Source: Pluralibacter sp. UBA7423
Lineage (GTDB): Bacteria; Pseudomonadota; Gammaproteobacteria; Enterobacterales; Enterobacteriaceae
Assembly (NCBI GenBank): GCA_002470465.1
Contig: DKMD01000018.1
Coordinates: 29,046-93,045 of the forward strand
Length of the DNA: 64,000 bases
Direction of reading: 5' to 3'
The notes beneath the pieces are model-generated. The model saw only the letters and a list, made by a program, of their open reading frames with translations, searched no databases and was not told the origin of the DNA. This document shows, piece by piece, positions 15,107-62,018 of the stretch (position 1 is the first letter of the stretch; every line of letters starts with the position of its first letter). The translations under genes were made by a program, and so were the position numbers.

Positions 15107-15919
15107 ATGTCTGACACTTCGGTTAAAAATTCTGATAATGCTAAACCTTTAGGATATCGCATCGCTGGGAGCGTTGACTTTATTCTCGAAGAGGGAAAAT
15201 TACGTCATGTTTTATCAGGAAAAGAATCCCTTCTGTACATCCCTGCTGCTCAATGTCTGGAGAAGCTGCTGAGCGAGCACGGAAGCGTGGTTAGCTATGA
15301 AGAGTTGATTCAGGCTGGCTGGCCAGAAAGGGCTGACAAAATCTCCCTGAACACCTTTTACCAGATGGTATCAAACCTCCGTCGGCAGATCGGTGCTGTG
15401 TTACCTGAAGAGGATATTGTTACTACAGTAAAACGCAGTGGGTTACAAGTTACAGTTCCTGTAACTGTAATTCAAAATACTTTTTTAAAAGATGAGGGTA
15501 AATCTCTGTCTCAGCCAGCTGACATCAGCCACCCTAATATTGCTTTAAATCCAGCAGGTGAAAAAAGATCCGTTAAGCTGAGACTGATAAGTTCCTTTTT
15601 GATGCTAACATGTTTCGCTGGGAGCATTTTATATGTTTATCTACAGAGTAAATCACCGTTCCCCCGTTTTTTTGATAATTATACTTTTTATCAGAAATTA
15701 TCTTCCGGATGTTCGATGTATACAAATAATGACGATGCAGCGAAAATCTCCAACCGGTTCTCACCAACGGTATTTGATTGTAAGGGGTTTTCTGTGGCGT
15801 ACATTAGCCAATGGCCGATGAGGACTCGTTCGTCGGCCATTTTGTGCCACCCTACCGGAAGATCAAAAGTTTATGGTCTTGAATGCAAAAGCTATTATTA
15901 TGCGAGTAATGCACAATGA
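15107..15919 (+). CDS. ToxR/MarT-like transmembrane wHTH regulator 1
   Basis: A 270-residue membrane-bound transcription factor. Residues about 20-118 form an OmpR/ToxR-type winged helix, with LEKLLSEHGSVVSYEELIQA, NTFYQMVSNLRRQIG and the wing IVTTVKRSGLQV. A single membrane helix lies near 159-179. The roughly 90-residue periplasmic tail has four cysteines (202, 225, 247, 260) at spacings like those in the regulators at 52.2 and 60.8 kb, and shares VAYISQWPM with YISHFPM of copy 2. It lacks the receiver domain of two-component regulators, so it should bind DNA from the membrane. Its stop overlaps the start of the partner gene by four bases. It lies near an autotransporter and fimbrial genes, its likely targets. 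Confidence 0.8.
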   Translation: MSDTSVKNSDNAKPLGYRIAGSVDFILEEGKLRHVLSGKESLLYIPAAQCLEKLLSEHGSVVSYEELIQAGWPERADKISLNTFYQMVSNLRRQIGAVLPEEDIVTTVKRSGLQVTVPVTVIQNTFLKDEGKSLSQPADISHPNIALNPAGEKRSVKLRLISSFLMLTCFAGSILYVYLQSKSPFPRFFDNYTFYQKLSSGCSMYTNNDDAAKISNRFSPTVFDCKGFSVAYISQWPMRTRSSAILCHPTGRSKVYGLECKSYYYASNAQ

Positions 15920-16401
15920 TAAAATTTCGTAAAATAAGTATCCTGAAATTTAATTTGATAATGTTGTCTTTTTCCCTGGCGATTTTTGCCTATGGATGGC
16001 AGCTTAAGCAATTCAACCAGAAAATGAATTGCACCATAAATATGGTTATATCAAACCATGACCTGACCATGCCATTTATCGGTCGGCTGTTTTATTCAAA
16101 TGGTCGAGGGTATCTTTCCTTTGATGGGCCGGTCTACGCAGATCATCAGTATGAAGGTATACTTAGCCGCATCATATACTTTTCGGGGGAATATAAAGGG
16201 GATATGTTGAGTATTAAAGGGGAAAAGATGCTCGTTCCTGAGAAAAATAGTTTTCCTCAATTAAATGCTGAAAGAATTCTGCCTAATTTTTTTGTACGGC
16301 CTAATTCGACAATTTCATTTTACTTACGACAGGAGAAAGGCGGGGTGTTTTTCCTGAAAGAAAATGTGCCCATTTTTTACTGTAAAGATTTAGTGAAATG
16401 A
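15916..16401 (+). CDS. FidL-like single-span partner protein 1
   Basis: A 161-residue protein starting in the ATGA overlap with the upstream regulator, which implies translational coupling. An N-terminal hydrophobic helix (about residues 11-28) should anchor it in the inner membrane with the rest in the periplasm. Two cysteines, C39 (MNCTIN) and C156 (FYCKD), correspond to one near each end of the partners at 51.7 and 61.6 kb. Shared blocks include G.LSF(D/N)G and R.I.F..EY in the middle and P.FF(V/Y) before the end. It resembles Salmonella FidL in size, topology and placement beside a ToxR-like gene. I infer that it senses a signal for, or stabilises, its regulator as ToxS does ToxR. Confidence 0.65.
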   Translation: MIKFRKISILKFNLIMLSFSLAIFAYGWQLKQFNQKMNCTINMVISNHDLTMPFIGRLFYSNGRGYLSFDGPVYADHQYEGILSRIIYFSGEYKGDMLSIKGEKMLVPEKNSFPQLNAERILPNFFVRPNSTISFYLRQEKGGVFFLKENVPIFYCKDLVK

Positions 16402-17028
16402 CTATATTTACTCCCCTTATATCTACATCTACACCCAACTTTTGGGATTGGCAGTTTGCCAGCTATAGGTATATGCTCTTATAGCACTGTTTTTTTTAGT
16501 GAATCAGGAGGAACATCAGTTGTTATTATTTACCCATTAGTATTCTATTATTCTTCGCAGTAAGGTTAATATTTGAACTGTATAGGTGGAAATGTTGAAT
16601 ATTTGTGCTATCTAGGTATTTAGAATACTCAATAATATTTAACACAGGCCTGTTCTGTTTGATAAAACCTCTCGCCACTGTGTGGCGTTTCAGTCCGTTG
16701 AACCAGAACTGCTCAGTGAAAATTTGGACAGTTGATGATCAATGCTGCATGTGATCATATGCCGAAAATGGATGGCTAAATATTCCATTATCTGAACGTT
16801 ACACTGAGCGGTTCTGTCTGGTGCAGATAGACTTGCCGATGGCTGAAACCTCATTATCTAGTACTAAGCACTGACTATGGCACCGTTTGAAAATGACCAT
16901 TTAAATTCGAATATTATCGAAAAGCATTTAACTTGTACTGATCCGCCTTTATAAATTAATCGGGTTGGCTGCATCAGCAACGAGGTAGGTTTGATCAATA
17001 ACAGTTGGATGAGTGAGGGGAGTGCAAC
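16402..17028. other. AT-rich gap with no recognisable gene
   Basis: About 630 bp between the FidL-like gene and the 3' end of the alpha-glucosidase cluster. No frame is convincingly coding, and no inverted repeat with a T-run was found. The composition is like the left accessory region, so the border between accessory and metabolic DNA lies near 17.0 kb. Confidence 0.4.
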
Positions 17029-18675
17029 TCAAAACTGATAAACCCGCGTTTCCCAGTGATGAAGCCGGTAAGGCTCGTCAATCTGTGCAGCGTTCCCCAG
17101 CACGCACTTCGCACCTTCAAGGCTGAGCTCGCTCTGCGGCCACTGTGCAGATTTGGACGACAAATTACACAGCACCAGAAACGTCTCGTTGCCCAGCTCA
17201 CGGGTATAAGCATAGATCTGCGGGTGATCCGCCAGCGCCAGCCGATAGCGGCCATAGATTAGCGTGCGCTCTTTTTTACGCAGGGCGATCAGGGCCCGAT
17301 AAAAATTGAGCACCGAATCGGGATCCTGCTGCTGAGCGGCAACGTTAATGATGACGTGGTTGGCATTGACCTGAAACCAGGGCTTAACCTCACTGAAACC
17401 GGCATTGGTCGAGTGATCCCACTGCATTGGCGTGCGGGAGTTGTCGCGCCCGGTGTGGGTGAGGAAGGCAATGATTTCCTCTTCGCTTTTGCCCTGCGTT
17501 GCCATATCCCGCCACATATTTTTCGCTGAGACATCATCGAAGTCGGCCAGGCCATTAAAGTGGGTGTTGGTCATGCCGATTTCCTGGCCCTGATAGATAA
17601 ACGGCGTGCCCTGCATCAGAAAATAAAGCACCGCGAGACAAGTCGCACTTTCCCGCCAGTAGTGCTGGGTATCGCCCCAGCGTGAGGTGATGCGGGTTAA
17701 ATCGTGGTTTTCGACGTACAGCGCATTCCAGCCTTTGCCCTCCAGCGCCTCCTGCCAGGCGGTGAAGATTTTTTTCAGCTGAGCGGGAGAGGGGCGGATC
17801 CCGGCTTCGGTTTCCCACAGCCGTACGTGCTCGAACTGGAACACCATATTCAGACGATTGCGATGCTCGCCGACCCACTCCTCGGCGTGAGCGGAATCCA
17901 GGCCGTTTACCTCGCCAACGGTGACGATGTCGTAGTGCTGAAAGACGTTGCGGCTCATGTCGTCGACGTAGTCCAGCAGCCCGTCGTAGTTGAGGTGGCT
18001 TTTCATTGACGGCACATAGCGCAGATTATCAGGGTTGGGCACATCGGCAAGCGTCGGCTCTTTTTTCATATGGCAGATGGCGTCGATGCGAAAGCCGTCG
18101 ATGCCTTTGTCCAGCCACCAGCGCATCATCTCGTAAACCGCGCTGCGTACTTCCTGATTCTCCCAGTTCAGATCCGGCTGACGACGGGTAAACAGGTGCA
18201 GGTAATACTGTTCAGTGTGCGGATCAAACTCCCACGCTGAGCCTTTGAAAATGCCTTCCCAGTTGTTCGGCTCCGCGCCATTTTTCCCGTCGCGCCAGGT
18301 GTACCAGTCGCGTTTCGGATTGTCTCTTGAAGAGCGGGATTCCAGGAACCATGGATGCTCGTCGGAGGTATGGTTGACGACCAGATCGATAATCAGCCGC
18401 ATCCCGCGGGCGTGAACTTCGGCCAGCAGGCGGTCGAAATCGGCCATTGTGCCGAACTCCGCCATGATCTGCTGATAGTCGCTGATGTCGTAGCCGTTGT
18501 CGTCGTTAGGCGATTTGTACATCGGGCAGATCCAGATCAGATCGATGCCCAGATCCTTCAGGTAGTCGAGTTTATCGGTGATGCCGTTGAGATCGCCAAT
18601 GCCGTCGCCATTGCTGTCCTTAAAACTGCGCGGATAAATCTGGTAGGCCACGGCCTCTTTCCACCAGGTTGCCAT
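17029..18675 (-). CDS. GH13 alpha-glucosidase / oligo-1,6-glucosidase 1
   Basis: A 548-residue cytoplasmic glycosidase without a signal peptide. The four GH13 regions are present: DLVVNHTSDEHPWF (97-110), GFRIDAI with nucleophile D198, GEVNG with acid/base E255, and VENHD with D325. The opening WWKEAVAYQIYPRSFKDSNG is typical of oligo-1,6-glucosidases, trehalulose/isomaltulose hydrolases and related enzymes. It lies three bases downstream of a second GH13 gene and behind a sugar ABC importer, so it should hydrolyse the imported alpha-glucoside to glucose and a second sugar. Valine after the catalytic glutamate (GEV) is common in alpha-1,6-acting members, but exact specificity is not certain. 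It is not a sucrose isomerase: the length and the RLDRD motif do not fit. Confidence 0.9.
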   Translation of the reverse strand: MATWWKEAVAYQIYPRSFKDSNGDGIGDLNGITDKLDYLKDLGIDLIWICPMYKSPNDDNGYDISDYQQIMAEFGTMADFDRLLAEVHARGMRLIIDLVVNHTSDEHPWFLESRSSRDNPKRDWYTWRDGKNGAEPNNWEGIFKGSAWEFDPHTEQYYLHLFTRRQPDLNWENQEVRSAVYEMMRWWLDKGIDGFRIDAICHMKKEPTLADVPNPDNLRYVPSMKSHLNYDGLLDYVDDMSRNVFQHYDIVTVGEVNGLDSAHAEEWVGEHRNRLNMVFQFEHVRLWETEAGIRPSPAQLKKIFTAWQEALEGKGWNALYVENHDLTRITSRWGDTQHYWRESATCLAVLYFLMQGTPFIYQGQEIGMTNTHFNGLADFDDVSAKNMWRDMATQGKSEEEIIAFLTHTGRDNSRTPMQWDHSTNAGFSEVKPWFQVNANHVIINVAAQQQDPDSVLNFYRALIALRKKERTLIYGRYRLALADHPQIYAYTRELGNETFLVLCNLSSKSAQWPQSELSLEGAKCVLGNAAQIDEPYRLHHWETRVYQF

Positions 18676-18677
18676 CG

Positions 18678-20318
18678 TTATCTCCCGATCAGTATTGCGA
18701 AGGATTCATAAGGTTGGAGCTCGATGCTCGAGCCAAGCAGTTCGCGTGGGGCGTAATGGCTAATCATGCATTCGCCGTGCCAGCCGTGCATCTCTTCTGG
18801 CAGCTTCAGCATCACGCGTTCGCGGCTGAAGTTGTTTATCACCAGCAGCGTGTCGCTGCCGAGGGTTCTGAGCCACGCGAAAACCTGCGGGTGGCTGGCA
18901 AAGATCTGCTGAAAGTCGCCGTACACCAGAACAGGGTGCTGTTTACGCAGCGCCACCAGCTTCTGGTAATGCCAGAAAACAGAATCCGGATTCGCCAGCG
19001 CGGCGGCGACGTTGATTTCCCGGTAGTTGGGATTCACGGCAATCCACGGTGTACCGCTGGTAAAACCGGCATTTGGGCTTGCGTCCCATTGCATCGGCGT
19101 GCGGGCGTTGTCGCGCCCGTTGGCGTGGATGCCGAGCATCATCTCTTCATGGCTGACGCCTGCCTCCACCCGTTCGCGGTAGAGGTTCAGGGTTTCGATA
19201 TCACGGTAGTCATGAATGGATTTGAAGCGCACGTTGGTCATGCCGATCTCTTCGCCCTGATAGATATAAGGCGTCCCCTTCAGGCAGTGCAGGGCGGTGG
19301 CGAGCATTTTGGCAGAGGCTTCGCGATACTCTCCCTCGTCGCCGAATTTGGACACCGCTCGTGGCAGATCGTGGTTGCTCCAGAACAGCGAGTTCCAGCC
19401 TTCGTGCGCCAGCGCCGTTTGCCATTTATCGATCACGGCTTTGAAACCCGACAGCTCAAACGGCCTGCTGCGCCACTTTCCGGCGTGCTCGTCCCAGAAC
19501 TGCTTGATGTGGTCAAACTGGAACACCATCGACAGCTCATCGCGATCTTCAGCGCTGTAGAGCAACGCATCCTCCGGCGAGGCGCTCCAGGCTTCACCGA
19601 CCGTGACGTAATCACCTTTGCCGAAGGTGGCCCGGTTCATCTGGCGAATCAGCGCGTGCAGGTTTTTGCCGTTGGCCATGATTTGCTTATCGACCTCTTT
19701 GCCAATCAGGTCGATAACGTCCATGCGAAAGCCGCCAATACCGCGGGCGAGCCAGCGATTCATCATGGCGTGGACTTCTTCGTGTACGCGCGGGTTATCC
19801 CAGTTGAGATCGGGCTGGCGCTTTGAAAACTGATGCAGATAGTATTCACCGCTCGCCTCGTCGAACGCCCAGCCGCTGCCGCCAAAATAAGAACGAAAGC
19901 CATTCGGCGGCCCGCCGTCCGCTGCCGGTTTGCGCCAGATGTAGAAGTCACGGTATTGGCTATCGGGGGATTTTAGCGCTTCGAGAAACCACGGATGCTC
20001 GTCGGAGGTGTGGTTGACCACCAGATCCATCAGGATGTGGATGTCGCGCCGTTTCGCCTGTTCGATAAGTTCGTCCATTCGGGCAAGGGTACCGAACTCG
20101 GCGGCGATATCTTCGTAGTCGGAGATGTCGTAGCCGTTATCGTCCATCGGCGAGCGATACACCGGCGAGAGCCAGATCAGGTTAATACCTAGCTGGTGGA
20201 GGTAATCGAGCTTACTGATGATGCCGCCGAGATCGCCGATCCCATCGCCGTTGCTGTCCATAAAGCTGCGCGGATAGATCTGGTACACCACGGCGCTGTG
20301 CCACCATTTTTGCTCCAT
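18678..20318 (-). CDS. GH13 alpha-glucosidase / oligo-1,6-glucosidase 2
   Basis: A 546-residue GH13 enzyme from ATG 20318, which follows a strong AAGGAGAAAG; the frame is open 27 codons further but that part is repeat DNA. Conserved regions are DLVVNHTSDEHPWF (98-111), GFRMDVIDL with nucleophile D200, GEAWS with acid/base E242, and SNHD with D317. It is a paralog of the neighbouring enzyme and is cytoplasmic. Differences around the catalytic residues (GEAWS against GEVNG, SNHD against ENHD) suggest that the two split linkage or substrate preferences, for example alpha-1,6 or alpha-1,1 against alpha-1,4. It is probably cotranscribed with the ABC transporter upstream. Confidence 0.9.
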   Translation of the reverse strand: MEQKWWHSAVVYQIYPRSFMDSNGDGIGDLGGIISKLDYLHQLGINLIWLSPVYRSPMDDNGYDISDYEDIAAEFGTLARMDELIEQAKRRDIHILMDLVVNHTSDEHPWFLEALKSPDSQYRDFYIWRKPAADGGPPNGFRSYFGGSGWAFDEASGEYYLHQFSKRQPDLNWDNPRVHEEVHAMMNRWLARGIGGFRMDVIDLIGKEVDKQIMANGKNLHALIRQMNRATFGKGDYVTVGEAWSASPEDALLYSAEDRDELSMVFQFDHIKQFWDEHAGKWRSRPFELSGFKAVIDKWQTALAHEGWNSLFWSNHDLPRAVSKFGDEGEYREASAKMLATALHCLKGTPYIYQGEEIGMTNVRFKSIHDYRDIETLNLYRERVEAGVSHEEMMLGIHANGRDNARTPMQWDASPNAGFTSGTPWIAVNPNYREINVAAALANPDSVFWHYQKLVALRKQHPVLVYGDFQQIFASHPQVFAWLRTLGSDTLLVINNFSRERVMLKLPEEMHGWHGECMISHYAPRELLGSSIELQPYESFAILIGR

Positions 20319-20335
20319 TGCTTTCTCCTTTGAAT

Positions 20336-20361
20336 GTCGGGTGGCGCTGCGCTTACCCGAC
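20336..20361. repeat. REP-like palindromic unit
   Basis: GTCGGGT (20336-20342) and ACCCGAC (20355-20361) enclose a GC-rich centre, followed by CTACAAAA, the usual form of enterobacterial REP units. It lies between the ATPase gene and the glucosidase gene and may protect upstream mRNA or reduce downstream expression. Confidence 0.7.
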
Positions 20362-20405
20362 CTACAAAACCCTTGCAGGGGGGATAAGCGTAGAGACATC
20401 CACCA

Positions 20406-21500
20406 CTAAAGCCTTTGAAATGCCAGTCCCGCATCATCGAACAAATAGCAGCGCTCCGGCGGCAGGCGCAGGCCGAGGCGCTGATCGGGCGCGATTTCCA
20501 GCCGCGACGTCAGGCGCGTCACCAGGGGTTCGCTGCCATAGCCACCGTTGACGTAGAGCAGCGTTTCGTTGCCCATCTGCTCGACAAACAGCACTTCGCC
20601 CTCCACATCCGCCACGGGCAGGTCAATCAGCTGAACGTGCTCCGGGCGGATGCCAAGCCATACGCGATCGCCAACTTTTCCCCTCAGCGTATCTATTGGC
20701 AGCACCATGCGCTGGCGGTTCTCCAGATCCACCCCCGTTTCGCTTTCGCTCGTTGCGGTGAGCGTGCCAGCAATCAGGTTCATCTTCGGTGAGCCAATAA
20801 ACTGCGCAACGAACAGGTTGGCGGGGCGATCGTACAGCTCAAGCGGAGAGCCGACCTGCTCTATATGGCCCTGATTCAGCACCACAATCCGGTCAGCAAG
20901 CGTCATCGCCTCCACCTGATCATGGGTGACGTACAGAATGGTGGCGTTAATACGCTTGTGCAGCGCGGCGATCTCCATGCGCATCTGTACGCGCAGTGAA
21001 GCATCAAGGTTTGAGAGCGGCTCGTCGAACAGAAACAGGCTGGGTTCGCGCACTATCGCCCGGCCAATCGCCACGCGCTGACGCTGGCCGCCGGAAAGAT
21101 CTTTCGGCCGCCTGTCGAGCAAGTTTTCAAGTTGCAAAATGCGCGCACTGTTCCTGACTTTTTCATCGATCTCCTTGGCCGGGCGCTTTGCCATTTCAAG
21201 AGCAAACGCCATGTTCTGGTAAACCGTCATGTGCGGGTAGAGCGCGTAAGACTGAAACACCATCCCGATGCCGCGCTCGGAGGGGGAGTCATCGTTCACG
21301 CAAACGCCGTCGATGCGCATTTCGCCTTCGCTTATCTCTTCAAGCCCCGCCACCATCCGCAGCAGCGTCGATTTGCCGCAGCCCGAAGGGCCGACCACAA
21401 CCACGAATTCGCCATCGCTGACGGTCAAATCCAGCGGCTTGATCACCTCCGAAGAGGAGCCGTAACGCTTGCTGATCTTGTCGAGTACCAGTTGCCCCAT
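20406..21500 (-). CDS. Sugar ABC transporter ATPase (MalK/UgpC-like)
   Basis: A 364-residue nucleotide-binding subunit of an alpha-glucoside importer. Walker A GPSGCGKST is at residues 37-45, the signature LSGGQ at 135-139, Walker B LFLFDE with E160, and a switch histidine in YVTHDQ. The C-terminal third is the TOBE/OB-fold regulatory domain (IRPEHVQL, EQMGNETLLYVNG) typical of CUT1 transporters. Two bases separate it from the permease gene, so the set is an operon. It energises the permeases encoded upstream. In MalK the C-terminal domain also mediates inducer exclusion; whether that holds here is unknown. Confidence 0.92.
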   Translation of the reverse strand: MGQLVLDKISKRYGSSSEVIKPLDLTVSDGEFVVVVGPSGCGKSTLLRMVAGLEEISEGEMRIDGVCVNDDSPSERGIGMVFQSYALYPHMTVYQNMAFALEMAKRPAKEIDEKVRNSARILQLENLLDRRPKDLSGGQRQRVAIGRAIVREPSLFLFDEPLSNLDASLRVQMRMEIAALHKRINATILYVTHDQVEAMTLADRIVVLNQGHIEQVGSPLELYDRPANLFVAQFIGSPKMNLIAGTLTATSESETGVDLENRQRMVLPIDTLRGKVGDRVWLGIRPEHVQLIDLPVADVEGEVLFVEQMGNETLLYVNGGYGSEPLVTRLTSRLEIAPDQRLGLRLPPERCYLFDDAGLAFQRL

Positions 21501-21502
21501 CG

Positions 21503-22348
21503 TTACCCCTTAATTGCTCCGCTGGTGAGCCCGCTGACGATACGTTTCTGAAAGATCAGCACCAGGATGATGATCGGCAGCGTCACCACCACCGATGCCG
21601 CCATAATGCTGCCCCATGGCAGCTCGAAGGTGGAGGCACCGCTGAACATGCTGATGGCTACCGGCACCGTGCGTTTGTCTCCGGAGATGATGAACGTCAG
21701 CGCGAACATAAATTCGTTCCACGCGCCGATAAACGCCAGCAGGCCCGTGGTGACCAGCGCCGGGGCGAGGATCGGCGCAAAGACGCGGCGGATAATGGTC
21801 CAGGTGCCTGCGCCATCGACAATGGCCGCTTCTTCGAGTTCGACCGGGATCGACTTCATAAAGGTGGTCAATACCCAGACGGTAAACGGCAGCGAAAACG
21901 TGGTGTAGGAGAGAACGAGCGCGCCCAGTGAGTCGTACAGCCCCAGAAAGCGCACCAGTTCGAACATGCCGGTCAGCACCGCCACCTGCGGGAACATCGA
22001 TACGCACAAAATGGTGAACAGCAGAAAGCGCCTGCCGCGAAACGGCACGCGGGCCAGCGCAAACGAGGCGGTGACGGACACCAGCAGGCAGATGCCAACG
22101 GTGATGGTCGCCACCAGCACCGAGTTCAGCAGGCTGCGGGCGATACCGTTATCCACCAGCGCGACCACATAGTTATGCCAGTGCCAGCCGCTCGGCAGAT
22201 AGGCCGGTAAAAACAGCTCCTGTCCGGTGCGCAGCGAGGTCAGGATTGCGTAGTAAAACGGGAAAACGCAGAACAGCACGGCAAGCGTCGCGCCTGCGTA
22301 AATCGTGAGGTTTTTGCCAAAGCGTCGCTGGGTGCGCGTGGTTTTCAT
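21503..22348 (-). CDS. Sugar ABC permease (MalG-like)
   Basis: A 281-residue inner-membrane protein of the CUT1 class with about six hydrophobic segments; the first (LTIYAGATLAVLFCVFPFYY) follows a positively charged start. The coupling-helix motif EEAAIVDGAGTWTIIRRVFAP is the EAA loop that contacts the ATPase. The ORF starts in a four-base overlap with the MalF-like permease (22345-22348), so the two should be made in equal amounts. With its partner it forms the translocation path for the sugar. Confidence 0.92.
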   Translation of the reverse strand: MKTTRTQRRFGKNLTIYAGATLAVLFCVFPFYYAILTSLRTGQELFLPAYLPSGWHWHNYVVALVDNGIARSLLNSVLVATITVGICLLVSVTASFALARVPFRGRRFLLFTILCVSMFPQVAVLTGMFELVRFLGLYDSLGALVLSYTTFSLPFTVWVLTTFMKSIPVELEEAAIVDGAGTWTIIRRVFAPILAPALVTTGLLAFIGAWNEFMFALTFIISGDKRTVPVAISMFSGASTFELPWGSIMAASVVVTLPIIILVLIFQKRIVSGLTSGAIKG

Positions 22349-28919: not shown

Positions 28920-28928
28920 TGATGTTGT

Positions 28929-51676: not shown

Positions 51677-52168
51677 TCACTTCACCACTACGGCCTGGAA
51701 GGAACGTTTGCAGGAGAATGTCGGTAGTGTCCCTATAAAAAAAAGATAGTTGTTATTGAACTGTTTTATTATTTTAATGTAAATATCTTTGCCTTCATAA
51801 ACATAAAAATCAGGAAAGCGCTGTGCCATCCACTCATCGCTGACGGAATCATCGGGATACTTGATATTATGCATCGAGCGTAATACATAGGTATTTTGAT
51901 TCCGTTGGTAATCAAATAAAATTTTTCGATTGAAGATCTTAGTGGGATCTTCTTCCAGATAGCCGTTCAGGCTCAGGGAACCACCTGTTTTATTGAATAC
52001 GTAGTGCGATGTTCCATGAACATTACCTTGTGAACCATGGCTTATGTGATTAGCCACGCAGGAAATGGTATTATCATGCTTCGATATCCACAGGATATAA
52101 GTCAGGCTGGCGCTGGCAAACAGCGCTACAGCAATCAGAAGAAGTACCGATAAATTCTTTAGCATCAC
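51677..52168 (-). CDS. FidL-like single-span partner protein 2
   Basis: A 163-residue protein that overlaps the ToxR-like gene upstream by four bases. The N-terminal helix (residues 6-28) should hold it in the inner membrane with a periplasmic domain. C37 (ISCVAN) and C153 (FSCKRS) match the two cysteines of copies 1 and 3, and the block NRKILFDYQ aligns with SRIIYFSGEY of copy 1 and SRQVLFHYK of copy 3. PDFYVYEGKDIYI is also shared in pattern. It probably modulates the paired regulator at the membrane. Confidence 0.65.
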   Translation of the reverse strand: MMLKNLSVLLLIAVALFASASLTYILWISKHDNTISCVANHISHGSQGNVHGTSHYVFNKTGGSLSLNGYLEEDPTKIFNRKILFDYQRNQNTYVLRSMHNIKYPDDSVSDEWMAQRFPDFYVYEGKDIYIKIIKQFNNNYLFFIGTLPTFSCKRSFQAVVVK

Positions 52169-53028
52169 TTATTGGACTCAAAGAAATAATCTGAAATACA
52201 GGTATTATGTTGGCTCATCGGCTTATCACAGCGAATGATAGAGGTTCGAGGCAACATCGGAAAGTGTGAAATATATAGCCAGGGATAGTTCTGGCAGCTT
52301 CGCTCAAAACGGTTAACATATGAAAGGGCTTTATCTTTATCAGCTTTGCTTTTGATATTTTTTGAAAGAAAGACTCTGCATTCTCCGTGTGAAATAGAGG
52401 CAGAATAGGTTTCAAAGTAGCGGTGATTAGTGGCATTGTCAGAGCCTATGGCAAATGCCATAAAGAGCGTCAACAAAATAAAAATAATGAGGATAAGGCT
52501 GCTTATCTGCTTGATTGATAGCCGGTGAGCAAGAACACGCAGGCTAGCTTTCTGTGCTGGTGGGAACAATTTTGTGTCCCCTGGAGCATGCTGTGTCTCG
52601 ATGGTTAAACCTGGGCTCATGCTGTCATCTTCTTGTTCATGAATAGCATTTGCATGATCGTGCCTGATTTCCGCCTCGTGATCGGCGACCAGCTTCTTAA
52701 CCTGGGTGCCGCTGGCCAGCGTCAGGCCAATGCGCGGAATGGTCACGATCAGATTTTCAACTACCCCTAACTTTTTTAATCCCTTTCGTAGAATTGAGAT
52801 GTTCTGATAATAGGTATTCAGTGAGACCTGCATCCCACTTTGCTCCCAGACAATATCCATGACCTCATGTTGGGTAACAATATTTCCCTGGCGATTAATC
52901 AATAGCAGCAGACAGCGACTGGCGGGATAATTTAGTACCACTACATTGTTGGGGTCATGCAAATCCCGTAGCGTACTCGTCGCTGGATGAAATTCTAAAG
53001 TGTTATTTATAATATAATGATTGTGCAT
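52165..53028 (-). CDS. ToxR/MarT-like transmembrane wHTH regulator 2
   Basis: A 287-residue regulator. The winged helix covers about residues 10-106 (RCLLLLINRQGNIVTQHEVM, NTYYQNISILRKGLKKLG, wing IVTIPRIGLTL). An acidic, histidine-rich linker follows (ADHEAEIRHDHANAIHEQED), then one membrane helix (about 176-194) and a periplasmic tail with C217, C245, C267 and C277. AGGAAG precedes the ATG. It is divergent from the LuxR-type gene at 53483 and close to fimbrial locus 2, which it may control. Confidence 0.8.
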   Translation of the reverse strand: MHNHYIINNTLEFHPATSTLRDLHDPNNVVVLNYPASRCLLLLINRQGNIVTQHEVMDIVWEQSGMQVSLNTYYQNISILRKGLKKLGVVENLIVTIPRIGLTLASGTQVKKLVADHEAEIRHDHANAIHEQEDDSMSPGLTIETQHAPGDTKLFPPAQKASLRVLAHRLSIKQISSLILIIFILLTLFMAFAIGSDNATNHRYFETYSASISHGECRVFLSKNIKSKADKDKALSYVNRFERSCQNYPWLYISHFPMLPRTSIIRCDKPMSQHNTCISDYFFESNK

Positions 53029-53482
53029 AGCTTCCTTTCTTTTTCTCCATAAATATAAAGCAGTTCTTTGTTTGTAAGAGATAAATTGAGGTTTTTTTAA
53101 CTGATAAAGGGTGTTTGTTAAAGATTATTTTTTGGATTATACACCCCCTGAAAAAGGATTTTTCTGAAAAATAGTCATATTTAGCAATGCTCATGCTTCT
53201 AAACTTGATTTTTACAGCGGGCAGAAAACTTAAGGAAAGGGCTCTTTTCTACGACTGCGCTGTGTTATTTATTGACACCGGTAACCGATAATCTTTGTGA
53301 TGACTGATGTTTTTGAAATGATTGTGAATTAATCTTTATTTGGCTTTAAACATGCAGCGGAAATACTTCAAATAATTTCAGGTGCGCCTGGGAAAGCCTC
53401 TTCGCCATAATGGAATGACAACTCAGTAATCAAAATCAGAACAAATCTAACGGCATGTGCACCAGGGAGTAAGGAGGGGGGT
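53029..53482. promoter_or_regulatory. Divergent promoter region, AT-rich
   Basis: 454 bp between the ToxR-like gene (minus) and the LuxR-type gene (plus), very AT-rich at the ToxR-like side. Both promoters must lie here. A perfect AAGGAGG (53471-53477) serves the LuxR-type gene. No operator can be fixed. Confidence 0.45.
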
Positions 53483-54085
53483 ATGCTGAATATACCAGGG
53501 TCAGAAGGGCGGATGACCGTTGCATTATCAGATGCGAATCATTTTGTCCGCAACGCAATTTATACTTTATTACAGGAGCTGGATACGCAGGGGAAAATCA
53601 GCGTCTCGGTCAGAAATTATCCATTGCTGGAAAATACGCAGGAACAAAGCGATATCGACTTGGTATTCTGGTCCGGCCTGGAATCAGGCACCGGATATGG
53701 TTGTCTGGAATATGTCAAAGAGGCGCGGGAAAAATACCCCAAAATGGCAATCTGCATGTACTCACAACAGCCTGACTCCTCATTGTATATTCGTGGTCAT
53801 ATTGATGCCTGGCTCTCATTGAATGAACCCTTGTCGACATGGCGAAGCTATATCATGAAAGTGATCGATGCCAGCACCTGTTCACGCAAAAAAAATTCCG
53901 GTGAGTTTCCGTTAACGGAAAGTGAATGGGAAGTCCTTAAAGCCATTAAAGCGGGCGACTCTTTGCAGGATATCGCCGTAAAAACAGAAAACAGCTATCG
54001 CCGGGTCAGTGCATTAAAAAACTCGGCAATCCGTAAACTTGGGTTGCGCAATAAAACAGAACTGCTGTTATTTCTGACGCGTTAA
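53483..54085 (+). CDS. LuxR-type regulator A of fimbrial locus 2
   Basis: A 200-residue protein. An N-terminal receiver-like fold without a clear phosphoacceptor (MTVALSDANHFVRNAIYTLL; DIDLVFWSG) is followed by a LuxR-type helix-turn-helix in the last 60 residues: LTESEWEVLKAIKAG, then YRRVSALKNSAIRKLGLRNK. That C-terminal part is nearly identical in plan to regulator B at 59514, so the two are paralogs. It ends 11 bp from the 3' end of the convergent adhesin gene. Such pairs often set fimbrial expression; the direction of action is unknown. Confidence 0.85.
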   Translation: MLNIPGSEGRMTVALSDANHFVRNAIYTLLQELDTQGKISVSVRNYPLLENTQEQSDIDLVFWSGLESGTGYGCLEYVKEAREKYPKMAICMYSQQPDSSLYIRGHIDAWLSLNEPLSTWRSYIMKVIDASTCSRKKNSGEFPLTESEWEVLKAIKAGDSLQDIAVKTENSYRRVSALKNSAIRKLGLRNKTELLLFLTR

Positions 54086-54096
54086 GTTGTTGTGCG

Positions 54097-55622: not shown

Positions 55623-58147
55623 TGGCAATTCAGCTCCTGTGTGTAAAGGCCGGTCGCCGGATTGAAATGTTGGGGTTTCAGGTAATAGGAGGCCTGGCAC
55701 TGTTTATCCGCCCCTTTTCCCCAGACGATTTTCAGCGTGCCGGACTCCGCTAAACCCGACATGTATAAGCTGCCGTTGTCGCCGACGATGCCGCTGTTTT
55801 GCTGGCGCTGGCTGATGGAGGCGAGGCTACCAAAAGGCAGATCGCTCCGGTCGTGGCGGATAAAGAACATCGCTTTGAGCCCGGTCTGGGTTTTAATTTC
55901 CGCTCTGACGAGAGCGCCTTCTGTCGGCACCACGTTCACAATGGCATTTTCGATCTCGACGTTCTGCCCGGCGGTCGTGACGTCCATTTCAACCCGGTTC
56001 TGGCGATAGGGTGAAGCCCAGGGGATAACGGCGTAGCCATGGCTGTCGGTGGTAACATTCGGGTTATTACGCAGCGCGGCGCCCTCTGCTCCCGGTGCTT
56101 TGACCAGAATGTTGGTGTTGCCTAATGGGCGGCTGAGCGTCACGCCTCCCTCATGAAGGACGATACCGCCACTTGCGCCATAGCTGATATTGCGGGACTG
56201 TGGCGAATAGCCGTAGCCCAGGTTGTAGTCACCTTTTCCGGTGGAATATTGCAGCGCGAGATTCCCGCCGTTTTCATTCTGCGAATTTATTCTCTGGCTG
56301 GCGCTGTAGAACAGACTTTTGTTGCCTGGCATGTAGCCACTAATACCCAGGTTATAAACCGCAGGTGAAGCACTGGGCTGTAGTACGGAGAAGTTTGCCC
56401 GCGTAGCGGCAGCGGGCGAGCCCAGCGGAACAGAAACGGCTAACGACAGGATGTTTTCCTTTTTCCCGCTGCCGAGTGAAGTGCTCCGCTGGTAGCTCAG
56501 GCCAAACGATAAACGCCGCCAGGTGCTGTTCCAGGCGAATTGAGTGCTTTCTGACGTCTGATTCGATTTCCACCAGGTTTGTCGTACCCAGGAGAGCGAA
56601 AGCGATCCTAAATCGCCCATCTGCTGAGATATCTCGAGCTGGTTTTTGGCTTTTTTGGCCCTGTTTAAATCGTAATAGTTGTCGTATTGATAAGTGACGG
56701 TTCCGTCGCTGTTTGTCGTTTGCGGCGGGGCACCGCTTTTCATGGCCCGCCATGTGGTGTCGCTCAGGCTGTAAAAGCCTGCGGTTGAATAGCGCCAGGA
56801 ATAAAAATTAAGCCGGGTGCCGTAATAGTTCAGCAATTTACTGTAACGAACCTGAACAGAATTACCTGAATAGAGATGGCCATCGGCCAGTCGGCTGCGT
56901 GCGTGGGTAAGATCGACGGCATAAGCACCCACGATCCCCAGATTTTGTCCCGCGCCGATAGCCACCGCGCGGTAATCGAGCGTAAGCTGCGTGCCGCCGT
57001 ACAGCGTCAGGTTATCGAATGCTCCCCAGTACGCTTCCCCCCAAAACAGCTGCGGCTCGTTCTGGTTACCAGCGGCCTGATATTTACCTGCCCCCACGGC
57101 GTAATGAACCTGCCCCCGACGCAACATGTCAGGTACGCTTGCGAACGGCACGGTAAAATGCTGATTCTGGCCATTTTCCTCTTCAATGGTAACGTCCAGA
57201 TCCCCCCCAAATGCCGTCGGGTAAAGATCTTTCAGAATAAAAGGGCCGGGTGAAACCGTCGTCTGGTAGAGAATGTTGTTATTTTGCCGTACGGTCACGG
57301 TGGCATGGCTTTTGGCAATGCCTTTTACTTCCGGGGCGTACCCGCGCAGGCTGTCCGGCAGCATATTATCGTCGGAATTGAGCATAATTCCGCGCATGCC
57401 GACGGAGTCGAACAGCTTTTGAGAAGAGAGCACTTCCCCGACGGAAAGCTGGGAGTCCAGCGCTTTCAGATCGCGCTGAAGCCAGGTGCGTCCATGAGAA
57501 AAACCATCTGCCTGGCTTTTGGTCCAGGTGGAGTAGTCGCGTAAACGCCATGCGCCCCAGTTCAGCGCGCTGGAAAGCCCGATGAAAAGCTGCTCCGGAG
57601 CCTGCGCGTCATCACGCGATCCGTTGATCACATAGTTCACCCATCCGGAGGTCAGCCCGTAGTCCCAGCTTTCTGGATTAACGTAGCCGCGCGGCAGGTT
57701 GACCATGTAGCGCTGGGGAACGTTAACTTGCAGCGTCATGGTTTTGTTGATGAATGAAAATGTGGCCTGGGGCAGTATATCTTCAAGAGACCAGAGCCCG
57801 GCTTGTTGCTGCTGAAACGCATTGGCGTCAGCAAGCTGTTTAAGATCGATTCCCAGCGCGCTGAGTTGCTCTTTGCTGAACTGAGGTGAAACGACCCCCT
57901 CCCTCATCGCGAAGGGAATGTCGGCGGTGAAAGCAAAATTATCGTTGATATAAATATTAACGTTGTAGTGACCCGGTGGAATTTCATTGCCGCTGCCGAT
58001 CCACGAAAGATCGACGTTATTATCGACTTCGCCATTAATAAAGGCCGGGTTGAAGCGTAAATCACTTTCAGCAACGGCGTTATCCACCAGCAGAGTTAAT
58101 GACGATGCCATAAAAATGATTTTAACTTTCATTTTAACCTGATTCAT
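55619..58147 (-). CDS. Outer-membrane fimbrial usher, locus 2
   Basis: An 842-residue FimD-like usher. The signal peptide ends NAVAE, and the N-terminal domain starts SDLRFNPAFINGEVDNNVDLSW. The plug region includes PEVKGIAKSHATVTVRQNNN, and the barrel and C-terminal domains end with GADKQCQASYYLKP and TQELNCQ, where a C-terminal cysteine pair is usual. It starts at ATG 58147, or at the ATG five codons on, which has AGG before it. It secretes and assembles the fibre of locus 2 and is unrelated in detail to the usher of locus 1. Confidence 0.93.
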   Translation of the reverse strand: MNQVKMKVKIIFMASSLTLLVDNAVAESDLRFNPAFINGEVDNNVDLSWIGSGNEIPPGHYNVNIYINDNFAFTADIPFAMREGVVSPQFSKEQLSALGIDLKQLADANAFQQQQAGLWSLEDILPQATFSFINKTMTLQVNVPQRYMVNLPRGYVNPESWDYGLTSGWVNYVINGSRDDAQAPEQLFIGLSSALNWGAWRLRDYSTWTKSQADGFSHGRTWLQRDLKALDSQLSVGEVLSSQKLFDSVGMRGIMLNSDDNMLPDSLRGYAPEVKGIAKSHATVTVRQNNNILYQTTVSPGPFILKDLYPTAFGGDLDVTIEEENGQNQHFTVPFASVPDMLRRGQVHYAVGAGKYQAAGNQNEPQLFWGEAYWGAFDNLTLYGGTQLTLDYRAVAIGAGQNLGIVGAYAVDLTHARSRLADGHLYSGNSVQVRYSKLLNYYGTRLNFYSWRYSTAGFYSLSDTTWRAMKSGAPPQTTNSDGTVTYQYDNYYDLNRAKKAKNQLEISQQMGDLGSLSLSWVRQTWWKSNQTSESTQFAWNSTWRRLSFGLSYQRSTSLGSGKKENILSLAVSVPLGSPAAATRANFSVLQPSASPAVYNLGISGYMPGNKSLFYSASQRINSQNENGGNLALQYSTGKGDYNLGYGYSPQSRNISYGASGGIVLHEGGVTLSRPLGNTNILVKAPGAEGAALRNNPNVTTDSHGYAVIPWASPYRQNRVEMDVTTAGQNVEIENAIVNVVPTEGALVRAEIKTQTGLKAMFFIRHDRSDLPFGSLASISQRQQNSGIVGDNGSLYMSGLAESGTLKIVWGKGADKQCQASYYLKPQHFNPATGLYTQELNCQ

Positions 58148-58178
58148 TTTGCGCGATTAAGTTAACTCAAAACTGCGG

Positions 58179-58850
58179 CTAAAAATGCACGTCCATCACC
58201 GGAGTTAATGCACCAAAATCGTTGATGGTTTGATAGCTAATGCGCTGTGCAGCCTGAAATTTTCCCGGGATTGTCGCTTCGCTTTTCGGCGCGATCATCA
58301 CCGGTGCAACGCTCTTATTGTCAATACGGACATTGGTAGTGGTAATGTAAAAAGGTGTCGGGTTGCTAAAAGTAATGGTCCCGTTATGATTGTTTGCTTT
58401 TATTTTTGTATGGCTCTGAACAGCGCCTTCAGCAATACTCTGCGGGCGGTAAAAGAGCTTTATTCTGCTGGCAGACGCAAACTGCAATGTATTTTCAGAT
58501 GTGGTGGTTTGCATCTGCGGAATCGCTTTCACCGTTATCCAGTAAAGCGTTTCCCGATCCTGAGTAAGCGGTTTTCCGGCAAACAGGACCTTCAGCATAT
58601 TTTCACTGGCAGGCTTGAGCACGAACAGCGGCGGCGTAATAACAAAATCGCGTGAGGGCTGCCCCTGTTCGTTCTCTATCCATGACTGGATGAGAAACTG
58701 TGACTGCGAATCGGTGTTTCTGACTTCCAGAGAGGATTGTTTACTGTCGCTGGTGTAGATAAGACGGGTGGTTCCCAGCCCGACGCCCCCGGCGCGGGCA
58801 TCAATGGCGCAGAATATCAGCAGAAGAATGAGTGAGCGAAAGCGTTTCAT
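58179..58850 (-). CDS. Periplasmic pilus chaperone (FimC/PapD-like), locus 2
   Basis: A 223-residue exported chaperone from ATG 58850 behind AAGGAC (the frame is open to 58907). The signal peptide ends DARA. Conserved PapD features: GVGLGTTRLIYTSDSKQSS, FLIQSWIENEQGQPSRDFVITPPLF and ETLYWITVKAIPQ, followed by RIKLFYRP. It stabilises subunits in the periplasm. A hairpin lies between it and the major subunit gene upstream. Confidence 0.93.
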   Translation of the reverse strand: MKRFRSLILLLIFCAIDARAGGVGLGTTRLIYTSDSKQSSLEVRNTDSQSQFLIQSWIENEQGQPSRDFVITPPLFVLKPASENMLKVLFAGKPLTQDRETLYWITVKAIPQMQTTTSENTLQFASASRIKLFYRPQSIAEGAVQSHTKIKANNHNGTITFSNPTPFYITTTNVRIDNKSVAPVMIAPKSEATIPGKFQAAQRISYQTINDFGALTPVMDVHF

Positions 58851-58876
58851 GAATGTCCTTATACTTAGCAATAATG

Positions 58877-58901
58877 AAGGCCCGCTCCCGGAACGGGCCT
58901 T
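58877..58901 (-). terminator. Attenuator hairpin after the major subunit, locus 2
   Basis: AAGGCCCG (58877-58884) and CGGGCCTT (58894-58901) form a perfect stem between the major subunit and the chaperone. The T-run on the minus strand is weak (CATTATT), so read-through is likely. Confidence 0.65.
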
Positions 58902-58906
58902 TGTCA

Positions 58907-59461
58907 TCAGGAATAGGTCAGGGTATAAGTGGCAACGGCGCTGGCATCACCTGCGGTGGCATCGCCCGCTGATGAGTAATATTTAGCGCTGAAGTTGAGT
59001 GTATTCTCGCCATCACGCAGGCTGGTGACGCTGGATGCGACGCCCAGTTTTACCTGAGCCCCGTTCTCATCGTACAGACGGATAGCCACGTTTTGCGCCG
59101 TGGAAGCCCCGCCGTTGGAGCCTACAGCCAGGCTTGTGGGGTCAGCTTTATCGGGCGTGCCGCTGAAGGTAATCGCGACGCCCGTTGAGGTTTTGGTGTC
59201 ACAACCCTGTAAAACGATGGCGAAGTTTTTAGCCGTAGCAGACTGGCTACCTGCGGTTTTCAAAGAAGCTGCGCGGATCTCGCCAAGCTCCACATTAATA
59301 TCTGCGCTGTTGCTGCTGATGGCACATGCAGTGGTGACCACGCTGCCGTGAAAATTCACCGTGCCGCCACTGACTTCTGCAGCATGAACCGCACCTACGG
59401 CTGGTAGTAACAATAATAAGCTGATGGACAGCAAAGATTTAGTACGAATAAGCGAGTTCAT
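58907..59461 (-). CDS. FimA-like major fimbrial subunit, locus 2
   Basis: A 184-residue pilin with a signal peptide ending AVHAAE. The mature part has GTVNFHGSVVTTACAI, the second cysteine in VLQGCDTKT, and the terminal strand ATYTLTYS, all as in type 1 pilins. It is the first structural gene of the minus-strand operon major-chaperone-usher-minor-adhesin. It follows the LuxR-type gene at 59514 by 52 bp, so its promoter lies there or upstream of that gene. Confidence 0.93.
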   Translation of the reverse strand: MNSLIRTKSLLSISLLLLLPAVGAVHAAEVSGGTVNFHGSVVTTACAISSNSADINVELGEIRAASLKTAGSQSATAKNFAIVLQGCDTKTSTGVAITFSGTPDKADPTSLAVGSNGGASTAQNVAIRLYDENGAQVKLGVASSVTSLRDGENTLNFSAKYYSSAGDATAGDASAVATYTLTYS

Positions 59462-59513
59462 GAAATTACCCTACATAATGGCATGATTAAATAGACATCT
59501 AATAAATAGATGT

Positions 59514-60125
59514 TTAGCTGGTAAGAAATACCAGTAAATCTGTTTTATTTCGAAGTCCCAGTTTTCTTATCGCCGAGGTTTTTAAAGCGCTCACCCGGCG
59601 ATAAGGAATTTCTTCTTTGTGTGCAATATGGTGCATGGAAAAGCCACTTTTTATACCTTTTAATACTTTCCATTCGGCATGGGTTAGCGACATTCGCTGT
59701 GCGGGAAAGCGATTTAGCGTACCACGACGGTTTTCAAGTATTCTTTTTAATCTGTATTTCAGGGAGTAGATCGGTTCGTCCGTTGATAAGTAATCATCTA
59801 CCGCACCGCATGCCCAAAAGTAAAGGCTGCTACACGCTGAATAAATACAGATAGTCATTCCTGGATACGTTTCTTTTAACTGCTGAAGATAACTAATGCA
59901 GTCATAACCCTGGATTCCTGATTTATTGTCAGAGATAAATAAAATATCGACGGCGGTTTGCGATAAAAAAAGATCGAGAACCTTTTGTTCACGAACCGAC
60001 GCTCTAATATGGATGCGTGGGCTAATTTCCTGTATCAGGTTTGATAGTCCACCTCTGGCAAAGTTATCCGCTCCCATGATCGCGACTGTTTTATTATGCC
60101 CAGGAGAAAATGCGGTAATCATCAT
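59514..60125 (-). CDS. LuxR-type regulator B of fimbrial locus 2
   Basis: A 203-residue paralog of regulator A. The receiver-like N-terminus (KTVAIMGADNFARGGLSNLI, DILFISDNKSG) has no clear phosphorylation site. The helix-turn-helix region is LTHAEWKVLKGIKSG, then YRRVSALKTSAIRKLGLRNK and TDLLVFLTS. It is directly upstream of the major subunit gene and in the same direction, so it may be the first gene of the operon or autoregulate it. It starts at one of two adjacent ATG codons. Confidence 0.85.
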   Translation of the reverse strand: MMITAFSPGHNKTVAIMGADNFARGGLSNLIQEISPRIHIRASVREQKVLDLFLSQTAVDILFISDNKSGIQGYDCISYLQQLKETYPGMTICIYSACSSLYFWACGAVDDYLSTDEPIYSLKYRLKRILENRRGTLNRFPAQRMSLTHAEWKVLKGIKSGFSMHHIAHKEEIPYRRVSALKTSAIRKLGLRNKTDLLVFLTS

Positions 60126-60847
60126 CTTGCCCCCTCTGTTTGTGTTGTTAATGTGATTTTTTTTTACAAATAAATCAACGCCGCCTCACAAAGACCTGTT
60201 TTTTGGGTTTTAATGCTGCTTGTTTTGTGTTTATTGAAATTTTTGAATATTACCGTAAGATTTTGGCGCCTTTCTGTGGGGTTTTACACTGGTCGCGCCC
60301 GTTAAAAAACGCACCCTTTTTATTCACATCACGCTAACTTTCTTCGGAATAATCCATGGAAATTTCTTATTTTCCGTTAATTTCTGAGAGCCATGTCGCT
60401 GTTAGCACGAGCCACAGATCTTTATATTGCCAAACACCGTGCCCTCCCGCTGATGGGCGGGTCATAATCGCAGGTATCGAGTCAGGCTATTGTTTTTTAG
60501 CGGATTATTATCTACGCCTGTAGCATTACTCATCGTATTAACCGGCAGCATTTTTCGAACGCTTGCTGCTATTGTCCTTTTCACTGTTCCCTTCCCCTGA
60601 ATGGCGTTTGTCCTGAGTTCTTTTTTGGATCTAAAAAGCGGGAAAGTAATCAAAATTAGTCAAAACTTAATCAAAAGTTCGCGGTTTGGACTCAGGCTGT
60701 AGCGTGACATCTGCCTGTTTCAGAAGATCTGAAACGCGTCTGTAACATCTCTTGCAAGGCGTTAACTTATTGATTAGGAATCTTTTTAGATTTATAAGCT
60801 GTCTGATAGTATGGTTGGGAAAATTCCTAAAAATAAGATGCGAACCG
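60126..60847. other. Divergent intergenic region with no clear gene
   Basis: About 720 bp between LuxR-type regulator B (minus) and ToxR-like regulator 3 (plus). A 63-codon minus frame (60462-60653) has no recognisable family and is not called. The region should contain both promoters. Confidence 0.4.
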
Positions 60848-61579
60848 ATGACTGTTATCTACCTGATCAATAACGTATTGTCATTTTCTCCTGCTGATAA
60901 ATTACTGAAAAACATCGAAGAAAATATAAGCGCGAGCTTGCATACTCCCGCGTCAAACTGTTTGCAGGCGTTGATCGAACGTCAGGGAGAGGTCATCAGG
61001 CAGGAAGAACTTTATAAGATTGGCTGGGGCGAAATTAAAGGTCCTTCAACGTCGCCCAGTGCTTATTATCAGTGCTTTGTTAACTTACGTAAACAGCTGA
61101 AGATCATTGGCTATGAAGCCGAGCTCGTTATCACTGTGCCCAAAGAGGGGATGAAACTTGATCCGAACGCCAGGATAACTGTGGTGGAAGTGAATCCGGA
61201 GCAGGACGTTTCTTCTTTATCTGTCTGTCCGCGCAGTCGGGTCATTACCTCATGGCTGAAAACCAACAAGCTGTTAACCACATTTATTATCGGGTTTTGT
61301 GTGGTCATGGTGAAGCTGGTATTCATTTCTTTTCATCGCCATGAATATGTGTCTCAGCGTTTTCGTCCTGTAAATGCGCTACCGGCATGTCTTTTACTAA
61401 AAAAGGATGCCGACATATCGACGGAAGAGGCCGTGGGCATCATTCATTCATACAAAATTATGTGCAGCAGTGATAAACCGGTCTATGTCAGCGTAACTCC
61501 TGGTAAGCTGACGGGTATTCAATGTGACAAGGAGTTAAAACGCTGTACTTCATTTACCGAGATATCCCATTATGAATAA
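60848..61579 (+). CDS. ToxR/MarT-like transmembrane wHTH regulator 3
   Basis: A 243-residue regulator from ATG 60848 (MTVIYLINNVLSFSPADKLL); an earlier in-frame ATG at 60752 would add a hydrophobic segment before the DNA-binding domain. Winged-helix elements: CLQALIERQGEVIRQEELYK, AYYQCFVNLRKQLKIIG and wing VITVPKEGMKL. The single membrane helix lies near 142-161, and the periplasmic tail has C181, C206, C226 and C233, matching the other two copies. Its end overlaps the partner gene by eight bases. Confidence 0.8.
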   Translation: MTVIYLINNVLSFSPADKLLKNIEENISASLHTPASNCLQALIERQGEVIRQEELYKIGWGEIKGPSTSPSAYYQCFVNLRKQLKIIGYEAELVITVPKEGMKLDPNARITVVEVNPEQDVSSLSVCPRSRVITSWLKTNKLLTTFIIGFCVVMVKLVFISFHRHEYVSQRFRPVNALPACLLLKKDADISTEEAVGIIHSYKIMCSSDKPVYVSVTPGKLTGIQCDKELKRCTSFTEISHYE

Positions 61580-62018
61580 ATTTATTAGTGCCGTGGCGCT
61601 TGCCGCATTGTATGCATGTCCTTCTGTTGGGGCGGTGAAAGTTATAGACTGCAGTATTATCCATAAATTACATCATGGTAACGATACTGTATCTGTAACC
61701 TACAAGCTACATATGGCGAAAAATAGTGGAACGGTGGTTATGCAAGGCGTTTTTGATGAAGGGAATAAAAAATCGGTTATCAGCCGGCAGGTATTGTTTC
61801 ATTATAAGTCGGTAGATGATACAGGCTATCAGCTGACTTCCGATAAAATCATTTCGTTTTCAGGTGAGACGGTGCATCCTGAATCAATGAGAATGCACTA
61901 TCCCCTCTTTTTCCTGAAGGGAGGAATGCAGCTGTTTATGAGTATTCGCGAATTTTCGCCATACAGCCTCGCGATCAGTTTTGTATCTGATGTTTTATTT
62001 ATTTGCTCCAAACCCTGA
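61572..62018 (+). CDS. FidL-like periplasmic partner protein 3
   Basis: A 148-residue protein that begins eight bases before the regulator stop. Unlike copies 1 and 2, its N-terminus (MNKFISAVALAALYACPSVG followed by A) looks like a cleavable signal peptide, so it may be free in the periplasm. C27 (VIDCSII) and C145 (FICSKP) correspond to the paired cysteines of the other partners, as does SRQVLFHYK. The shared pattern with copies 1 and 2 is clear although overall identity is low. Function is inferred: modulation of regulator 3. Confidence 0.6.
   Translation: MNKFISAVALAALYACPSVGAVKVIDCSIIHKLHHGNDTVSVTYKLHMAKNSGTVVMQGVFDEGNKKSVISRQVLFHYKSVDDTGYQLTSDKIISFSGETVHPESMRMHYPLFFLKGGMQLFMSIREFSPYSLAISFVSDVLFICSKP

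What the first reader, a model, noticed from the sequence alone, without database searches (positions are those of the whole stretch)
15107..62018. Three paralogous ToxR-like regulator plus FidL-like partner pairs with a conserved cysteine code
Pairs at 15107-16401, 51677-53028 and 60848-62018 share one plan. Each has a winged-helix domain, one membrane helix and a short periplasmic tail, then a small exported partner whose gene overlaps by 4, 4 and 8 bases. All three regulator tails have exactly four cysteines (202/225/247/260, 217/245/267/277, 181/206/226/233). All three partners have one cysteine near the N-terminus of the periplasmic part and one near the C-terminus (C39/C156, C37/C153, C27/C145). 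Primary sequences differ widely, so the cysteines are under selection. I infer a disulfide-dependent sensor module, of the ToxR-ToxS or MarT-FidL kind but in three copies, wired to surface adhesins.
Basis: partly seen in the sequence, partly recalled or inferred. Interest (0 to 1): 0.85.

Follow-up and report, generated by a model that had tools for sequence, protein, structure and literature searches.

The report
Paired membrane sensors beside fimbriae operons

Summary

In a census of 115 partner ORFs from 42 genomes, 112 keep both partner cysteines, the other 3 being truncated; of 108 readable regulator tails 107 keep at least four. Of the 115, 53 lie within 10 kb of an usher gene, against about 5 expected at random. 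The own genome has six pairs, each within 5 kb of an usher; genomes with any have 1-8.

Most likely they are tethered activators of the neighbouring adhesin operons, tuned by a ligand or pH, with the cysteines as structural disulfides. Redox sensing is possible but not shown. New members of a known kind; modest interest.

The parts
15107..15919 (+). Regulator 1: winged-helix domain, membrane helix, periplasmic tail with C202/225/247/260
   Evidence: Pfam PF00486 33.1 bits, cut-off 26.2; cysteines and hydropathy
15916..16401 (+). Partner 1: N-terminal hydrophobic segment, C39 and C156
   Evidence: No Pfam family; own-genome profile hit E 1.5e-38; clustered database copy P0004, with a later start, carries precomputed PF27292.1
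52165..53028 (-). Regulator 2: same plan, C217/245/267/277
51677..52168 (-). Partner 2: GTG start, membrane helix, eight-strand barrel, C37 and C153
   Evidence: AlphaFold2 model pLDDT 91.8; eight best PDB matches are VtrC and ToxS chains; precomputed PF27292.1 for P0003
60848..61579 (+). Regulator 3: same plan, C181/206/226/233
   Evidence: PF00486 22.8 bits, below the 26.2 cut-off; own-genome profile hit E 6.6e-52
61572..62018 (+). Partner 3: C27 and C145 (plus C16 in the hydrophobic N-terminal segment)
   Evidence: Own-genome profile hit E 7.2e-35; cysteines
53483..54085 (+). LuxR-type regulator, divergent from regulator 2
   Evidence: PF00196 GerE 29.2 bits, cut-off 23.5
59514..60125 (-). 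LuxR-type regulator, divergent from regulator 3
   Evidence: PF00196 GerE 28.3 bits
54097..59461 (-). Chaperone-usher fimbrial operon between pairs 2 and 3 (three fimbrial subunits, usher, chaperone): proposed target, inferred
   Evidence: PF00419 three times, PF00577, PF00345/PF02753
3075..10874 (+). Second chaperone-usher operon with five DUF1120 proteins, upstream of pair 1: possible target, inferred
   Evidence: PF00345, five PF06551, PF00577; 10194-10874 matched no family
11000..13966 (+). Autotransporter between that operon and pair 1: possible target, inferred
   Evidence: PF03797, PF18883, PF03212

Best explanation
Each pair is a co-component transmembrane transcription regulator of the YqeI/YqeJ-FidL clade. 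The first protein binds DNA through a ToxR/CadC-type winged helix while tethered to the inner membrane; its small beta2-alpha-beta3 periplasmic domain joins a lipocalin-like eight-strand barrel, the partner, made from the overlapping gene. The partner most likely stabilises the regulator and tunes it to a periplasmic cue (an amphipathic ligand as in VtrC, or pH as in PsaF). The complex then switches the adjacent fimbrial or autotransporter genes, together with a divergent LuxR-type regulator at pairs 2 and 3. The cysteines most likely form three intrachain structural disulfides: C1-C2 and C3-C4 in the regulator tail, and one closing the partner barrel between strands 1 and 8. Shown here: sequence, layout, conservation, predicted partner fold, gene linkage. 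Inferred: heterodimer, disulfide formation, ligand, target promoters.
For: Same layout and 4+2 cysteines in K-12 YqeI/YqeJ. Partner 2 model's eight best PDB matches are VtrC and ToxS chains; ToxR is the best match of regulator 2's DNA-binding domain by structure and of the regulator profile by sequence (1.4e-18). Cysteines: 112 of 115 partner ORFs and 107 of 108 readable tails. L073 has lost C3 and C4 together and kept C1 and C2, as the pairing predicts. 53 of 115 partners within 10 kb of an usher, 4.7 expected; all six own pairs within 5 kb. PsaE cysteine-to-serine changes abolish psaA expression and destabilise PsaE and PsaF (PMC8407435, passages). A yqeI deletion in an avian E. coli lowered adhesion, which its authors link to lower fim gene expression (PMC7552227, passages).
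Against: No PDB match for the partner at E 0.001 or below. No coordinates were returned, so no disulfide distance was measured, and only pair 2 was modelled. 56 of 115 partners have no usher, chaperone or autotransporter match within 10 kb, so adhesin control is not general for the clade. Tail-partner co-divergence is only slightly stronger than wHTH-partner (partial r 0.41 versus 0.32).
Confidence: 0.72

Rival explanations
1. Redox sensor: making or breaking one of the disulfides is itself the signal that switches the regulator.
For: Near-invariant cysteines. Kinch et al. discuss acid-linked disulfide reduction in CadC and a possible shared pH role (PMC9214523 Discussion).
Against: Positions are those of structural disulfides; PsaE cysteine mutants lose the protein; VtrA works without a disulfide. 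No redox data exist for these proteins in what I saw.
Confidence: 0.15
2. The partner is only a folding chaperone or protease shield for the regulator and senses nothing.
For: ToxS, TcpH and PsaF all protect their regulators from proteolysis (PMC9214523 Discussion; PMC8407435).
Against: The barrel fold is shared with VtrC, which binds bile acid; PsaF responds to pH; the partner has conserved non-cysteine residues, R81 in 77 of 84 and G69 in 80 of 84.
Confidence: 0.2
3. Regulator and partner are linked by a disulfide between the two chains.
For: Both chains have a conserved cysteine near the C-terminus.
Against: Even numbers in each chain; C37 and C153 lie in strands 1 and 8, neighbours in a closed barrel; L073 lacks C3 and C4 while its partner keeps both.
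Confidence: 0.05

Closest known systems
YqeI/YqeJ (E. coli)
   Same: Domain plan, overlapping genes, four tail and two partner cysteines; a LuxR-type gene (yqeH) nearby
   Different: Low identity (25% regulator 1 to YqeI, 21% partner 1 to YqeJ). yqeI/J lies in the ETT2 remnant (PMC9214523), not beside an usher
MarT/FidL (Salmonella) and GrvA/FidL (E. coli O157)
   Same: Same class; MarT controls the neighbouring autotransporter MisL (PMC9214523)
   Different: Sequences not compared here; the window partners do not hit Pfam FidL_like
PsaE/PsaF and MyfE/MyfF (Yersinia)
   Same: Membrane-tethered regulator plus partner that control a fimbrial operon (PMC8407435; PMC10269533 Table 1)
   Different: PsaE has two periplasmic cysteines, not four
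VtrA/VtrC and ToxR/ToxS (Vibrio)
   Same: ToxR-type DNA-binding domain; barrel partner
   Different: VtrA lacks a disulfide, and VtrA and ToxR end in a helix that the regulator 2 model lacks

Membership tests
Co-component (VtrA/VtrC-like) systems | N-terminal CadC/ToxR-type winged helix | tested here: met
   PF00486 above cut-off for regulators 1 and 2, below it for 3; ToxR best by structure for regulator 2
Co-component (VtrA/VtrC-like) systems | Single membrane helix, then a short periplasmic domain of order beta2-alpha-beta3 | tested here: inconclusive
   Helix by hydropathy in all three; order of elements in the regulator 2 model fits; the fold search was filled by the winged helix, so the tail fold was not compared; regulators 1 and 3 not modelled
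Co-component (VtrA/VtrC-like) systems | Adjacent downstream partner gene, often overlapping | tested here: met
   Overlaps 4, 4 and 8 bases
Co-component (VtrA/VtrC-like) systems | Partner with lipocalin-like eight-strand fold | tested here: met
   Partner 2 only: eight strands, best matches VtrC and ToxS, E 0.004-0.06
Co-component (VtrA/VtrC-like) systems | Obligate heterodimer that senses a periplasmic cue | not testable with these tools
   Needs biochemistry; co-divergence gives weak support
Disulfide-bearing FidL/YqeJ clade | Partner cysteines in first and last strand; regulator cysteines in last two strands | tested here: met
   C37/C153 in strands 1 and 8, C267/C277 at the last two strands, by position only
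Disulfide-bearing FidL/YqeJ clade | C-terminal Cys codon overlapping the partner's start codon (a tendency in PMC9214523, with YqeI/YqeJ, GrvA/FidL and MarT/FidL named as exceptions) | tested here: not met
   Last tail Cys codon lies 26-32 bases or so upstream of the partner start in all three (from positions); not defining
Pfam PF15941 FidL_like | Match above the curated cut-off | tested here: not met
   No hit up to E 10 for the three partners. A sibling partner, L013, scores 16 of 27 bits; the database's newer precomputed label is PF15941.12 for the L013-type cluster P0006 and PF27292.1 for P0003 and P0004

The most novel reading that the evidence does not exclude
The three conserved disulfides make the regulator-partner complex a readout of periplasmic oxidative folding. 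Fimbrial subunits and their assembly also rely on the Dsb system (recalled), so these cassettes would allow fimbrial genes to be expressed only when the periplasm can fold their products: a folding-capacity checkpoint built into the activator, with the extra C1-C2 pair as this clade's added safeguard.
Probability: 0.1. Interest if true: 0.6.

Novelty: new member of a known kind. Interest (0 to 1): 0.3.

Why it matters
It places the window's adhesin operons beside a named class of sensor and turns a suggestive pattern into counts: the 4+2 cysteine code marks a clade that is recognisable even where identity falls to about 20%. It shows that the clade is over-represented next to chaperone-usher operons in this family of bacteria, sometimes with a pair on each side. 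It points to two testable features: a second regulator cysteine pair, and a highly conserved partner arginine.

Tried and rejected
Pfam and NCBIfam scans gave the three partners no family above cut-off; partner 1 had two weak NCBIfam matches. A sequence search of solved structures with the partner profile gave only weak, unrelated names (best E 0.093), so the fold search was needed. Near-identity search of E. coli genomes with the pair 1 region: no match. The usher listing is capped (at most 12 scored per genome, row list cut), so I used only its per-genome counts for the expectation, and repeated it with 29 ushers per genome (15.7 expected). An apparent regulator-partner fusion in L122 has only the first tail cysteine in place and then runs into the partner; I read it as decay. 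Absence of VtrA- or ToxR-tail structures means nothing, since the winged helix filled the list.

Considered and rejected: that the cysteines are shared only because the copies are recent (regulators 2 and 3 are 24 and 21% identical to regulator 1, partners 2 and 3 are 19 and 14% identical to partner 1); that three copies are unusual.

Rows dropped before counts: of 115 partner ORFs (some are pieces of broken genes) 5 had no upstream regulator-profile hit. Of 110 regulators, one ORF was too short to split at the membrane helix (L111; its fragment still shows four cysteines) and one has no tail (L097, in a genome listed as 49% complete). The other 108 had four (105), five (2) or two (1) tail cysteines. 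Two further regulator-profile hits without a detected partner (L142, L161) also show four tail cysteines and were not counted. In the co-divergence test 24 of 105 pairs were left out for short aligned stretches.

Full report
Observation. Regulators 1 and 2 match Pfam Trans_reg_C above its cut-off and regulator 3 below it; no partner matches a Pfam or NCBIfam family above cut-off.

What they are. E. coli K-12 YqeI/YqeJ, a control that I fetched, has the same plan and the same four plus two cysteines, and likewise no Pfam family above cut-off for its partner. Kinch et al. 2022 (PMC9214523; I read the abstract, Results parts 1 and 2 of 3, the CadC section and the Discussion, plus passages; not the supplement) describe this class as co-component systems: VtrA/VtrC, ToxR/ToxS, PsaE/PsaF, MarT/FidL, GrvA/FidL, YqeI/YqeJ and others. 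They report a partner disulfide between the N- and C-terminal strands and a regulator disulfide between the last two strands. I did not see the second regulator pair, C1-C2, mentioned in those sections.

Conservation. A protein search found 273 regulators and listed 120; all 120 listed have at least four tail cysteines (116 with four, 4 with five), 105 of the 116 with the spacing 28/22/10. In an alignment of 44 partners the only invariant columns are C37, R81 and C153; in 84 profile-aligned pairs the arginine falls to 77 of 84. To count without picking I took every partner match listed in a draw of 99 genomes of the family (42 with matches, the own genome among them) and fetched them, which gave 115 partner ORFs. 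Both partner cysteines are present in 112; the other three are truncated. Of 108 readable tails 107 have at least four. The exception, L073, has lost C3 and C4 together and kept C1 and C2, which fits the pairing C1-C2 and C3-C4.

Linkage. The own genome has six partner genes and nine ushers. Each pair lies within 5 kb of an usher: window pair 1 about 4.9 kb, pairs 2 and 3 about 2.6 and 2.7 kb on either side of one fimbrial operon, one pair at L012 about 2.2 kb, and two pairs flanking another operon at L013. In the 41 named loci found with the regulator profile, 31 have an usher match in the fetched flank of up to 10 kb a side (counted); many of these are one orthologous locus in Enterobacter and kin. 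In the best-partner-per-genome subset 20 of 41 have an usher. In the census 53 of 115 partners have an usher within 10 kb and 59 of 115 an usher, chaperone or autotransporter; random placement would give 4.7 for ushers, or 15.7 if each genome had 29 ushers. So the link to adhesins is real but far from universal. Enterobacter sp. CC120223-11 (L016) shows the window's order: pair 3, LuxR, chaperone, usher, LuxR, pair 2, so pairs 2 and 3 are not a recent local duplication.

How it works. The best account is a membrane-tethered activator held and tuned by a barrel partner, acting on neighbouring adhesin genes. The closest functional precedent is PsaE/PsaF: cysteine-to-serine changes in PsaE abolish target expression and destabilise both proteins, and PsaF histidines respond to pH (PMC8407435, passages). 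The same passages note that in ToxR loss of a cysteine affects stability less readily. This favours disulfides needed for folding over a redox switch, which I put at 0.15. Tail and partner distances correlate beyond the winged helix (partial r 0.41, p 0.001 in 999 permutations), but winged helix and partner also do, given the tail (0.32), so this is weak support for a cognate interface.

Family labels. The local Pfam FidL_like model does not hit the three partners and scores the L013 partner below cut-off (16 of 27 bits). The protein database carries newer precomputed labels: PF27292.1 for P0003 (partner 2) and P0004 (partner 1), PF15941.12 for the L013 type; I have no description of PF27292. 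Profiles of the two groups align at 96% probability, so they are related.

Novelty. New members of a known kind. Library searches for FidL with chaperone-usher (one unrelated paper listed) and for three of co-component, fimbria, lipocalin and cysteine (10 of 76 listed, listing only) showed no paper on this fimbria-linked set, also seen as listings, did not either. The review PMC10269533 (passages) already lists fimbrial control by PsaE and MyfE.

Noticed in passing
L012 4276-6411; L013 4331-12486 (own genome): Three further regulator/partner pairs beside two other chaperone-usher operons; at L013 a pair sits on each side of the operon, as pairs 2 and 3 do in the window.
   Followed up: yes
L010 7861-8433 (own genome, just upstream of the window): A lone 190-residue winged-helix protein with a membrane helix and no periplasmic tail or partner, beside genes that look by eye like Tad/Flp pilus genes. 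PypB, which controls Flp pilin in Yersinia (PMC10269533 Table 1), is a possible analogue. Similar tail-less lone regulators occur at L045, L047, L049 and L050.
   Followed up: partly
L070, L085, L095, L099, L107, L108, L118, L123, L124, L141, L159: In 11 census loci a short winged-helix ORF (122-163 residues stop to stop, no obvious membrane helix) lies near the pair, in most on the opposite strand just past the regulator; a possible third gene of the module.
   Followed up: no
53483-54085, 59514-60125; L012 5818-6411: LuxR-type genes next to three of the six own pairs, two of them divergent from the regulator; K-12 yqeH, also LuxR-type, lies upstream of yqeI/J.
   Followed up: partly
   Followed up: partly
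L073 (relative): A regulator that has lost both C-terminal tail cysteines but kept the first two, with an intact-looking partner that keeps both.
   Followed up: partly
L011 5738-6502 (own genome): A 254-residue winged-helix protein with a cysteine-bearing C-terminal part and no detected partner, next to genes that look by eye like a type III secretion cluster.
   Followed up: no
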